Positions 6,829 through 60,950 of a stretch of DNA of 64,000 nucleotides are shown in pieces. The stretch lies in the NCBI GenBank assembly GCA_030374805.1, contig JARGSG010000070.1, positions 62,001 through 126,000 of the forward strand, given 5' to 3'. The notes under the pieces were generated by a model. It made no database searches, was not told the DNA's origin, and saw only the letters and a program-made list of their open reading frames with translations. The stretch comes from Gracilaria gracilis (Eukaryota > Rhodophyta > Florideophyceae > Gracilariales > Gracilariaceae). Made by a program: the position numbers and the translations under genes. Every line of letters begins with the position of its first letter. Within the stretch, counting starts at the first letter, position 1.

Positions 6829-7696
6829 CCTGAGCAGGTTGTATGCTCCTATAACAGTGAAAAAGGCTATGGCTCACTCCGAATCTGAAATCGCATACCA
6901 GCTCACGGAGAAGGGTATAATAACAACACCAGTGATCAATCGAGTATTCTCCCTAGAGAAACTCGACATACATTTATTCACCCTTGCACAGTTGGACGGA
7001 AGCTGAGACCGTTTGTTATGTTTCAGGCGCGTCCTAGTTAGTTCTGTCCCGTCCCGAGCGCGAAAATCAACGGAGAAAAGAGGTGAGGTATTTAAAAATG
7101 ATTCTGCTCGGACCTGTACGCTTGTATAATGGGACTTCCGTGAATTGATTCTTGGGCTCAAGGTGCGAACGATTTAGCTTCGATAGCGGAGCTTCGAAAG
7201 CGGAGTTGATTTTGTTCGTAACTTCAAACTAGCCCAGAACTTGTTGGCCGGATCGACCTACAATGCCACCTTATTGACATCCGTGGAAGCGGAACGGAAT
7301 GACCGGTGTTATCTCTCTATTTGATAACCCGCTGTAATGTGCGCATGCATAATAACAGAATAGACTGTTTACGCATTGCGAGAACATAAAAAGCACAGTA
7401 GGTCCGACATGTGGCGCCAATATGCTCTCTCTCTCTCCCATAATATGGGATAAGAGTTCTACATATCTCTCCCCCCCCTGGTACTACCAGTGGACGCCAC
7501 ATCTAAAACAAACAGACGCCTCTCTCTCTCTCCCCGATGCTACCGGAGGTAGTTCTCTCATCTTGCAACCATTGCCTCAAGAGCTCGACGTACATGGATG
7601 AGATTTATTGTTCCGGCACTCCCATCTGAAATCGTACCTCCGCAGTTGTCCTCAAAGATTGTGCACAATACAGGGAGACTGTAATCGCCTATCTAC
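6829..7696. promoter_or_regulatory. Divergent promoter region with CT microsatellites and a TACC-N3-GGTA site
   Basis: This 868-bp region separates two divergent starts. It contains short CT runs near 7427-7437 and 7520-7532, and TACCGGAGGTA at 7541-7551, 146 bp upstream of the 7697 start. No gene is apparent. Confidence 0.5.
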
Positions 7697-8032
7697 ATGA
7701 AAGCCATGCGGCCGAAAGCGGTGTATCTGAGGATACGAGCTGAAATGGTATCCCCCGCTCTGAAGCCAGTGCCGAAGCAGATGGTTGAAGATGCTGTTCA
7801 ATCTGCTTTGACAACCATGTATGGCATAGTTGGCGCTTCCGCTTTGGTTTACGAATTCTGCCAATTTAGCATGTCTGACGAAGGTGTTTATGTTCTACGA
7901 GTGCCTGTACAGCACTATCAGAAGGTCTGGGCTGCTGTAACGATGCAAGGAAAAGTCAAGGACTTTGCAACACGACTGGTCGTAGAACGAGCGACACCAT
8001 TTATCTTCGCACTTTTCGACGAAGCTATCTGA
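7697..8032 (+). CDS. RNase P/MRP protein subunit, Rpp14/Pop5 family
   Basis: A 111-residue protein. The N-terminal strand PKAVYLRIRAEM, the segment MYGIVGASALVYEF, the GVYVLRVPVQHYQKVWAAVT block and the TRLVVERATPFIFAL C-terminus follow the Rpp14/Pop5 fold, in which ...xRVxxxxYxxVWAALT is the strongest motif. The C-terminus resembles human RPP14 (VSPFLLAL) more than POP5. The product should be a protein subunit of nuclear RNase P and/or RNase MRP, acting in pre-tRNA and pre-rRNA processing. The start could also be the second ATG four codons in. A NEPRO/RMP1-like gene lies 10.7 kb away. Confidence 0.78.
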   Translation: MKAMRPKAVYLRIRAEMVSPALKPVPKQMVEDAVQSALTTMYGIVGASALVYEFCQFSMSDEGVYVLRVPVQHYQKVWAAVTMQGKVKDFATRLVVERATPFIFALFDEAI

Positions 8033-8454
8033 GAGCGTTGTAGGGAATAACGCTTTTGGGGCGCGCTCTCGGGCGACATTCACAACATGTTTTGGTTACC
8101 TATACTGCGGAGCATCTTAGGGAGCTTAATTCCTGGGGGAAGGAGTTGTCAAATGATGCGAAGGGCGTACCCGAACTCGTTCACTTGTATGAATTCTGAT
8201 GTCGCCCTGGACAAACCGGACTTCTTTCCCTTTGTTTGTGTTGGTTAGCACGTGTGAAATATGCGGGTTACGGTCTTTATACACGACAAACGCCGTCGCT
8301 ATAGACCTCGTTTCTGTTTCCCACTTTGAGTTGAATCTGATGATGAGGAGGCTCTATACCACCTGGCACTGTTGCAAGCGTGATTGTTTAACACCTACTC
8401 TATGCTTATTATATCCATACAATATACGATTTGTTCGACTGGTATGTTTCTGCT
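8033..8454. other. Convergent 3' intergenic region
   Basis: It lies between the 3' ends of the RNase P/MRP gene and the PRP28 gene. I see no gene or notable repeat; it presumably holds the two 3' UTRs. Confidence 0.4.
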
Positions 8455-58700: not shown

Positions 58701-59223
58701 GTTGATGTGAGTGGAAGGCAACGGGAGGGATAGTTTGAGATTTACGTAAAGTATATCATGTGATCTATCTCTTCGATCACTTTGCTTGTATCTGACGCCT
58801 ATAGCTGGAGCGAAGTTGTGTCTACCGTTACTCTGCAGCAGTACACGCCGTGTGTACTACACGGTACTAGAGCCTCTACGACCCCCCTCCGTTTGATCCT
58901 GCTCATTGGATGAACTAATTTTAGTGAGTGGATTCGAATGAGCACTCTATGTGCAAATTATGCAGTTGTGCATAATGTATGTAAAATTGCGCGCCATGAC
59001 GCACCCCCTGGTAAACTTTAAACCTCCCGCAACGGCCGTCTGCTGTACAGTCCCCGTGCCATCCTACAGTGCTGTAGATAGCGATGCCAACAGGTTCGAT
59101 CACACCGATACCGAGTCCACACTTGTACTTGTCAAAGTGATGGGAGCGGAACCCAATTGCTCACGTTTGACGCTTTCTTCGTCTTACACTTGAGCCTCTC
59201 TCCACGTCGATTGTCCCTGCGCT
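58701..59223. promoter_or_regulatory. Divergent intergenic region
   Basis: 523 bp between divergent starts. An imperfect inverted repeat GTGTGTACTACACGGTAC lies near 58850. No gene is apparent. Confidence 0.35.
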
Positions 59224-60174
59224 ATGCATGGTGTCAGGAAAGGGGCGCGACCGAGCGCCGCCGAACAGAAGCGCGAGCTAGAAAGAGCTGCCATTTGCGC
59301 CGACTTGATCCGTAAGGCACTCCAACTCAGAAGCGAGCCGTTGGAACCCCCGCTTGAAAAGTCTTTCTACGATCAATACCACGTCGTGGAGAGGGCGCTT
59401 GAAACAAACCCGGACGAGTATTCCCTGTGGGCTTTCCGCCGCGATGTCTTGCTATGCAGAAGCGAATACGAATCTACTGACGCTATTCTCAGAGCATGGA
59501 AAGAAGAGCTGTTTCTAACCACCAGAGCGCTTCAGCGACATCCAAAAGCTTACCCAGCGTGGCAGCATCGCTTATGGTTGTTGGAAGATTCCAAACTGGC
59601 GCAACACCTTCCATCTGAAGTGCGATCGGAGGCCATACAAAGCGAATGGAAGTTGAGTGCTTACATGCTTTCAAAGGATGGGCGCAACTTTCATGGCTGG
59701 GCTCACAGAATGAGGATCAGGTCTGCTCTGACATCTGCCGTGCCAGAGAAGCAACCTCATCTTCAGAAAGAAGAGCTTGATTTCGCACAAGACAAGATCA
59801 ATGATGACTTTTCAAACTACTCAGCCTGGCACCATCGCAGCGTGCTGCTCCCTAAAGTGCATGATCGCTGCTCCGAGAGTTTTTTGACCGACGAATTGCA
59901 GTACGTGAAGCAGGCGTTCTATACTGAACCAAACGTACAATCTGCGTGGTTCTACCATCGATGGCTCCTCGCGGGCGCACCTGCGAGACGGAAAAAGGCT
60001 CCAGTGCAGAAACAAATACTTGAAGACGAGTTGGAAGCTTGCAATGAGTTACTAGACATTGAGCCGGAAGCAAGATATGCGCTTCAGACTAAAGCTCAGT
60101 TGCTGATACAGTTGGAACGGGGACAAGAAGCCGAGAAAGTTCTTGACGATCTCGAACGTCTTGTAAGTGCCTAA
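59224..60174 (+). CDS. RABGGTA: Rab geranylgeranyltransferase alpha subunit
   Basis: A 316-residue intronless protein. It starts MHGVRKGARPSAAEQKRELE, the family's MHGRxK-xxxxEQxxxK start. At least five PPTA repeats follow: ALETNPDEYSLWAFRRDVL, ALQRHPKAYPAWQHRLWLL, SKDGRNFHGWAHRMRI, NDDFSNYSAWHHRSVLL and YTEPNVQSAWFYHRWLL, each with the conserved W-x-x-R/H-R core. With its beta subunit and REP it attaches geranylgeranyl groups to Rab GTPases. The Ig-like and LRR domains of the mammalian alpha subunit are absent, as in yeast Bet4. Confidence 0.93.
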   Translation: MHGVRKGARPSAAEQKRELERAAICADLIRKALQLRSEPLEPPLEKSFYDQYHVVERALETNPDEYSLWAFRRDVLLCRSEYESTDAILRAWKEELFLTTRALQRHPKAYPAWQHRLWLLEDSKLAQHLPSEVRSEAIQSEWKLSAYMLSKDGRNFHGWAHRMRIRSALTSAVPEKQPHLQKEELDFAQDKINDDFSNYSAWHHRSVLLPKVHDRCSESFLTDELQYVKQAFYTEPNVQSAWFYHRWLLAGAPARRKKAPVQKQILEDELEACNELLDIEPEARYALQTKAQLLIQLERGQEAEKVLDDLERLVSA

Positions 60175-60950
60175 CATATTTTCTTCATTGAGACCCCTGT
60201 ACTCCATGAATTACAAACCACTAACTCGTTGGTTTGAACTTTTCGAAGGATCCGATGCGAAAAGGCTACTATCGCTTTCTGCGAGCAAAGTGCATTGCGC
60301 TTTCGTAAATTTGCAAGCGATGTGATCGTTCATGCATATGACTCTAGCCTGGGCGAGTGAAAAGACCCTGCATGTCGTTCCTGCTTGGTGATGGCAGTAT
60401 GAATCATGACCCCAGTCTTATTTAATGGCAAATGTACGTGAGCCCTTCTACGCCGAATCACAGACATTGCTCTCGAAGATCTTCAAGAGACTCTCACCTG
60501 GCGTACATTTCGCTTATGGAGAGAAACTTTGGCTTGAAGGAACTGAGAACAACTTTGAAGTTGTACAGAATAAAATGACACAAACTGACCCATAAGGTAG
60601 AGATGGACTGACATTGCCAAGATGACAAAGCTTCCGGGAACGATGCAGCTGTTGGAGTTCGGCGATGTGGCCGAGTTCCCACAAGAAGAAACAGGAAAGA
60701 ACGATTTTTGATTTTCTACCGACTTTCTAAATACAAAGGGTAGGCAATCAGAACCACAATTCATGATCTGCTACAGCGAGATCTTCTCGACCACATCAGA
60801 CATCATGCGACCCAGATGCCATCCCCGGCTGACACACATACCAACGGTAACGCTACCCGCCCCGCTCGACTTGAAGAACCCCGCTTTGAAGTTCATTATC
60901 GAACAACGAATTATCTTGAAACGTGAAGCCTTTGATTTGGTGCTAACTTA
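60175..60950. promoter_or_regulatory. Upstream region of release factor 1
   Basis: 776 bp with no supported gene. TACCAACGGTA at 60839-60849 lies 102-112 bp before the release factor start. Confidence 0.5.

What the first reader, a model, noticed from the sequence alone, without database searches (positions are those of the whole stretch)
7541..60849. Dispersed pseudo-palindrome TACC-N3-GGTA, 12 copies, all non-coding, several in proximal promoters
Reading the whole window by eye I find TACCNNNGGTA at 7541, 10823, 18285, 21081, 21568, 27362, 33637, 38033, 52223, 56715, 56724 and 60839. The pattern is its own reverse complement and fixes 8 bases, so about one copy is expected in 64 kb. Six copies are the exact 11-mer TACCAACGGTA or its complement (expected about 0.03), and two are TACCTTCGGTA. 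None lies in a called CDS although over half the window is coding. Copies lie 60-122 bp upstream of the starts of REV7, GCL, release factor 1 and the CDK, and 146 bp upstream of the RNase P/MRP gene. CAACGG is also a classical Myb recognition core (YAACKG). This looks like a lineage-specific promoter element for a dimeric or Myb-type factor, or the core of a very small dispersed repeat.
Basis: partly seen in the sequence, partly recalled or inferred. Interest (0 to 1): 0.75.

Follow-up and report, generated by a model that had tools for sequence, protein, structure and literature searches.

The report
Recurring short non-coding DNA palindrome
An 11-base near-palindrome, TACC-NNN-GGTA, occurs 12 times in the non-coding DNA of this algal-looking nuclear genome fragment, about 20 to 40 times more often than chance, and is most likely the docking site of a two-fold symmetric (dimeric) regulatory protein that has not been identified.

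Summary
TACCN3GGTA occurs 12 times at the stated coordinates (shuffles: mean 0.32, maximum 3). It is the most enriched of about 5,400 spaced 4+4 palindromes, and only with a 3-bp spacer. All copies lie outside the coding genes I could assign; non-coding DNA is about 40% of the window. Half-sites are strict, the spacer is biased but tolerant (AAC/GTT 6/12), and the flanks are unrelated; one-mismatch and base-pair-compensated variants are not in clear excess. That speaks against chance, a decaying dispersed repeat and an RNA hairpin, and favours a protein-DNA site read by a two-fold symmetric (dimeric) factor. The promoter claim is only weakly supported: 5 of 11 independent places lie within 200 bp upstream of a start codon (expected 20%, p about 0.05). 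No whole genome or relative was available, so genome-wide abundance, conservation and the bound factor are untested.

The parts
7541..7551 (.). TACCGGAGGTA, 146 bp upstream of Pop5/Rpp14 ORF (7697-8032 +)
10823..10833 (.). TACCAAGGGTA, about 265 bp upstream of the M50 protease ORF (11098 +), 596 bp from the DDX23-like helicase start (10227 -)
18285..18295 (+). TACCAACGGTA, about 400 bp upstream of NEPRO/RMP1-like ORF (18692 +); 20 bp from a one-mismatch inverted copy at 18305
18305..18315 (-). TACCAACGGTG, one-mismatch satellite copy
18022..18032 (+). TACCAACGGCA, one-mismatch copy
21081..21091 (.). TACCTACGGTA, 112 bp upstream of the CDK start (20969 -)
21568..21578 (+). TACCAACGGTA, in the divergent CDK / SMP-C2 intergenic region, about 435 bp upstream of the SMP-C2 start (22013 +)
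27362..27372 (-). TACCAACGGTA (minus strand), 77 bp upstream of the GCL start (27285 -)
33637..33647 (.). TACCAATGGTA, no mapped gene start nearby; degenerate second copy (TACCCACGTTA) at 33660
38033..38043 (+). TACCAACGGTA, about 840 bp upstream of the first ATG of the BET bromodomain ORF; 25-nt flank 88% like that of 56724
52223..52233 (.). TACCTTCGGTA inside a 19-bp perfect palindrome TATCTACCTTCGGTAGATA, 60 bp upstream of the REV7-like start (52293 +)
56715..56725 (.). TACCTTCGGTA, overlapping the next copy; no mapped start downstream within 2 kb
56724..56734 (-). TACCAACGGTA (minus strand), overlaps 56715 by 2 bp
60839..60849 (+). TACCAACGGTA, 102 bp upstream of the release factor 1 start (60951 +)

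Best explanation
TACC-N3-GGTA is a transcription-factor binding site (a cis-regulatory element). A dimer, or a protein with two equivalent DNA-reading domains, contacts the two TACC half-sites in inverted orientation 7 bp apart (about two thirds of a helical turn), with a preference for AAC in the spacer. Shown here: the site is real, strongly enriched, non-coding, strict in half-sites and spacing, and not part of a longer repeat. Inferred: that a protein binds it, that binding regulates neighbouring genes, and that copies within about 150 bp of starts act as proximal promoter elements. A MYB-superfamily dimer reading the ACC cores is the leading but unproven factor class.
For: Excess 12 vs 0.32. 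Top among all spaced palindromes, with spacer 3 giving 12 and spacers 0-30 otherwise 0-2. Non-coding only. Half-site variation is not in clear excess while spacer variation is: 12 copies with intact halves against 0.5 expected; 8 with one half-site mismatch against about 6 (both-strand counts halved). Compensated-stem variants are not enriched (7 vs 8.2). Extra TACC/GGTA half-sites within 30 bp of the sites, 11 vs 3.6 expected, as in clustered binding sites. Modest bias towards starts (8/11 within 450 bp, expected 38%, p 0.02). 11/12 spacers fit the R2R3-MYB AC element ACCWHH on one strand (P 8e-4 per copy, but only 0.06 counting distinct spacers; consensus from PMC3669277).
Against: The positional bias is weak and depends on an approximate gene map; at least 3 copies lie far from mapped starts. 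No factor, expression data, TSS or orthologous promoter could be examined. The neighbouring genes share no obvious function. Two R2R3-MYB molecules reading ACCWHH from both strands would overlap on the spacer, so an ordinary R2R3 pair is sterically doubtful.
Confidence: 0.7

Rival explanations
1. The site is specifically a Myb recognition element of the classical type (YAACKG; MSA core AACGG of MYB3R), with the palindrome incidental.
For: Six copies contain CAACGG; CAACGG is enriched in non-coding DNA (32 vs 13.7 expected) and not in coding DNA (19 vs 22); AACGG is the MSA core (PMC9730800).
Against: Only 6/12 copies, and one of six distinct spacers, contain AAC; the invariant part is TACC/GGTA, not AAC. 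All eight non-coding ACCAACGG lie in full or near-full palindromes, so the flanking half-sites matter. The AACGG core as a whole is only mildly enriched (57 vs 45.6, including the palindromes).
Confidence: 0.12
2. The copies are remnants or target sites of a very small dispersed repeat or MITE.
For: 38033 and 56724 share 88% over 25 nt, and 21568 and 60839 share 72% over 29 nt; a perfect 25-bp inverted repeat with a related TATCTACGGTATC sequence lies at 29702-29752.
Against: No other flanks align; no flank column carries strong information; no halo of one-mismatch half-sites while the spacer varies; dyad symmetry does not extend beyond the core.
Confidence: 0.08
3. An architectural, replication or chromatin-boundary protein site rather than a gene-specific regulatory site.
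For: Broad spacing (gaps mostly 3-7 kb), copies far from mapped starts (33637, 56715/56724), weak promoter bias.
Against: Five of 11 places are promoter-proximal; clustering of half-sites resembles regulatory sites.
Confidence: 0.15
4. An RNA element: a 4-bp stem with a 3-nt loop in UTRs.
For: The palindrome could fold as UACC-NNN-GGUA in RNA.
Against: Stems with compensated pairs are not enriched (7 vs 8.2): identity, not pairing, is kept. A 4-bp stem is weak.
Confidence: 0.03
5. Chance or compositional artefact.
For: Post hoc discovery by eye.
Against: About 1e-7 after correction for all spaced palindromes; half-site frequency is only slightly above expectation (180 vs 151 non-coding, 193 vs 185 coding), so composition does not explain the pairing.
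Confidence: 0.01

Closest known systems
R2R3-MYB AC elements (ACCWHH; e.g. AtMYB61, PMC3669277)
   Same: Invariant ACC core followed by tolerant bases; 11/12 spacers fit on one strand.
   Different: Here two ACC cores face each other across a fixed 3-bp spacer; AC elements are single asymmetric sites.
MSA element of MYB3R factors (core AACGG; PMC9730800)
   Same: Six copies contain CAACGG; one copy sits upstream of a CDK gene.
   Different: AAC is the variable part here; target genes are not a G2/M set; half of the copies lack the core.
P1BS (GNATATNC), bound by PHR1-type MYB-CC dimers (own knowledge)
   Same: Short imperfect palindrome bound by a dimer of single MYB repeats: a mechanistic analogue.
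   Different: Different sequence; no such factor could be looked for here.
RFX X-box (GTTRCC-N0-3-GGYAAC; own knowledge)
   Same: Inverted RCC/GGY halves with a short spacer.
   Different: The required GT/AC flanks are absent: no X-box match in the window.

Membership tests
Dimer-bound palindromic cis-element | Enriched inverted half-sites at a fixed spacing | tested here: met
   12 vs 0.5 expected at spacer 3 only
Dimer-bound palindromic cis-element | Bound by a dimeric protein | not testable with these tools
   No binding data and no genome held
Proximal promoter element | Enrichment close to transcription or translation starts | tested here: inconclusive
   p 0.02-0.07 by cut-off; approximate gene map
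Proximal promoter element | Conservation in orthologous promoters | not testable with these tools
   No close relative in the collections scanned
MYB YAACKG / MSA element | AAC core present in copies | tested here: not met
   6/12 copies, 1/6 distinct spacers
R2R3-MYB AC element | ACCWHH on one strand | tested here: inconclusive
   11/12 copies (P 8e-4), but 5/6 distinct spacers (P 0.06)
RFX X-box | GTTRCC-N0-3-GGYAAC | tested here: not met
   0 matches on either strand
Dispersed repeat / MITE | Alignable flanking sequence | tested here: not met
   Only two pairs share short flanks; no strongly informative flank columns

The most novel reading that the evidence does not exclude
A genome-wide, previously undescribed general regulatory element of this algal lineage: if the density of one per about 5 kb holds, thousands of copies near a large share of genes, bound by a dimeric (possibly single-repeat MYB) factor in a strict inverted ACC-N3-GGT geometry unlike known MYB sites.
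Probability: 0.35. Interest if true: 0.55.

Novelty: new member of a known kind. Interest (0 to 1): 0.4.

Why it matters
Cis-regulatory sequences of red and related unicellular algae are hardly described; my full-text searches found no report of this motif. A strict, abundant element gives a direct handle for finding a major regulator by pull-down or DAP-seq and for building promoters. As it stands it is an ordinary kind of thing, a probable protein-binding motif, with unusually clean statistics from one 64-kb window.

Tried and rejected
Whole-genome counting: no genome is held for the window. Relatives: GCL in genome contigs and viral contigs, and CDK in viral contigs, gave nothing. Rfam and tRNA scans were empty. 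Literature strings TACCAACGGTA (4 papers, none of which appears from title and abstract to concern promoters), TACCGTTGG/CCAACGGTA and TACCNNNGGTA-type patterns (none). RFX X-box: no match. Extension of the palindrome: flank pairs are complementary at about chance level; the 19-bp palindrome at 52223 is a single case. Strand bias relative to genes was read off the site table: mixed orientation, no signal. CHR-like TTTGAAA is enriched about twofold in both coding and non-coding DNA, so it was not pursued as a DREAM-type partner.

Full report
Observation. TACCNNNGGTA occurs exactly 12 times in the 64-kb window at the coordinates given, against a shuffle mean of 0.32 and maximum of 3. Among all 4+4 self-complementary words with spacers of 0 to 20 it ranks first by a wide margin (22-fold; the next is 7-fold), and the excess exists only at spacer 3 (12 copies; 0-2 at other spacers up to 30). 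Two copies overlap by 2 bp (56715, 56724), so 11 places are independent; P is about 2e-11, or about 1e-7 after correction for the words scanned.

Anatomy. Oriented by the spacer, the consensus is TACC-[A/T]-[A/T/C]-C-GGTA: six AAC (or GTT), two TTC, one each of TAC, AAT, AAG and GGA. The AAC preference is itself non-random (P about 2e-5 after correction). Both halves are invariant by definition of the search, so the informative control is the number of near misses: after halving for the palindrome, intact-half copies are 12 against about 0.5, while copies with one half-site mismatch are about 8 against about 6, and those with two are near expectation. In the same table the 11-mer with an intact spacer and one half-site mismatch appears twice (18022, 18305), both near the full site at 18285. 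Flanking columns carry little information, and dyad symmetry does not continue outward in general. One copy (52223) sits in a perfect 19-bp palindrome, TATCTACCTTCGGTAGATA. Additional TACC/GGTA half-sites cluster within 30 bp of the sites, 11 against 3.6 expected, with no obvious preferred offset.

Genes. Pfam and reading of ORFs give a gene-dense nuclear fragment: DFRP/RWD, Pop5/Rpp14, DDX23-like helicase, M50 protease, ABC ATPase, PAP/fibrillin, NEPRO/RMP1-like, CDK, SMP-C2, NDUFS3, GCL, BET bromodomain, Sel1/ARM protein, SEY1/RHD3, MAT1, a REV7-like gene with introns, F-box, prenyltransferase alpha subunit, release factor 1. REV7 did not match Pfam from its last exon alone; it is called by eye from three exons. 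PAP/fibrillin, an M50 protease and a bacterial-type RF1 whose leader looks like a simple transit peptide, together with few introns, suggest an alga with a primary plastid, probably a unicellular red alga; this is inference and was not tested.

Position. All copies are outside the assigned coding sequence, which covers about 60% of the window. Five of 11 independent places are within 200 bp upstream of a start codon (20% expected, p 0.05), and 8 of 11 within 450 bp (38% expected, p 0.02). This is weak, depends on an approximate gene map, and several cut-offs were tried.

Mechanism. Fixed spacing, strict inverted halves and a tolerant spacer are the signature of a two-fold symmetric protein on DNA (inference from established knowledge of dimeric transcription factors). 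An RNA stem should tolerate compensated pairs, and these are not enriched (7 against 8.2). A decaying repeat should show half-site variants as often as spacer variants and alignable flanks, and does not. A better Myb register is the AC element of R2R3-MYBs, where ACC is the critical core and the next three bases (WHH) are tolerant (AtMYB61, PMC3669277): 11 of 12 copies fit on one strand, though counting distinct spacers the fit is not significant (P 0.06). Two R2R3 domains would compete for the spacer, so a dimer of single MYB repeats, or another family altogether, is as likely. If the source is Porphyridium-like, MYB proteins are plentiful there: 23 two-repeat and 16 SHAQKYF members were counted in P. 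purpureum (PMC4827209).

Limits. No whole genome is held for the window, and no related contig was found. Genome-wide abundance, lineage distribution, promoter conservation and the factor itself are therefore untested. No paper in the searched library was found to name the motif; subscription journals are mostly not in that library.

Verdict. A real, statistically strong short DNA element, unreported in the searched library, most likely a dimer-bound regulatory site; ordinary in kind, useful as a lead.

Noticed in passing
29702-29752: Perfect 25-bp inverted repeat with a 1-nt centre (TATCTACGGTATCTATCTACGTGTA), next to a second palindromic stretch (acacgtacacgtacgtgtacacg) and upstream of an RNase H-like ORF; possibly a mobile-element end.
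   Followed up: partly
30600-33396: Nested imperfect inverted arms (30600/33365, 30718/33250, 30935/33059) flank the RNase H-like ORF 31529-32608, suggesting an insertion with long degenerate terminal inverted repeats.
   Followed up: no
2519-4789 (-): ORF combining a weak Ulp1/C48 protease match with a weak FAR1-type DNA-binding match, a combination seen in Mutator-like transposons (own knowledge).
   Followed up: no
34055-34181: Four tandem copies of a 30-33 bp unit with the core CATATCATTCGTGATCCG.
   Followed up: no
window-wide: TTTGAAA/TTTCAAA occurs 30 times, about twice the order-2 expectation in both coding and non-coding DNA.
   Followed up: partly
7697-8032 and 18692-19855: Two RNase P/MRP-type genes (Pop5/Rpp14 and a NEPRO/RMP1-like protein) lie within 11 kb and each has a TACCN3GGTA copy upstream (146 and about 400 bp).
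   Followed up: partly
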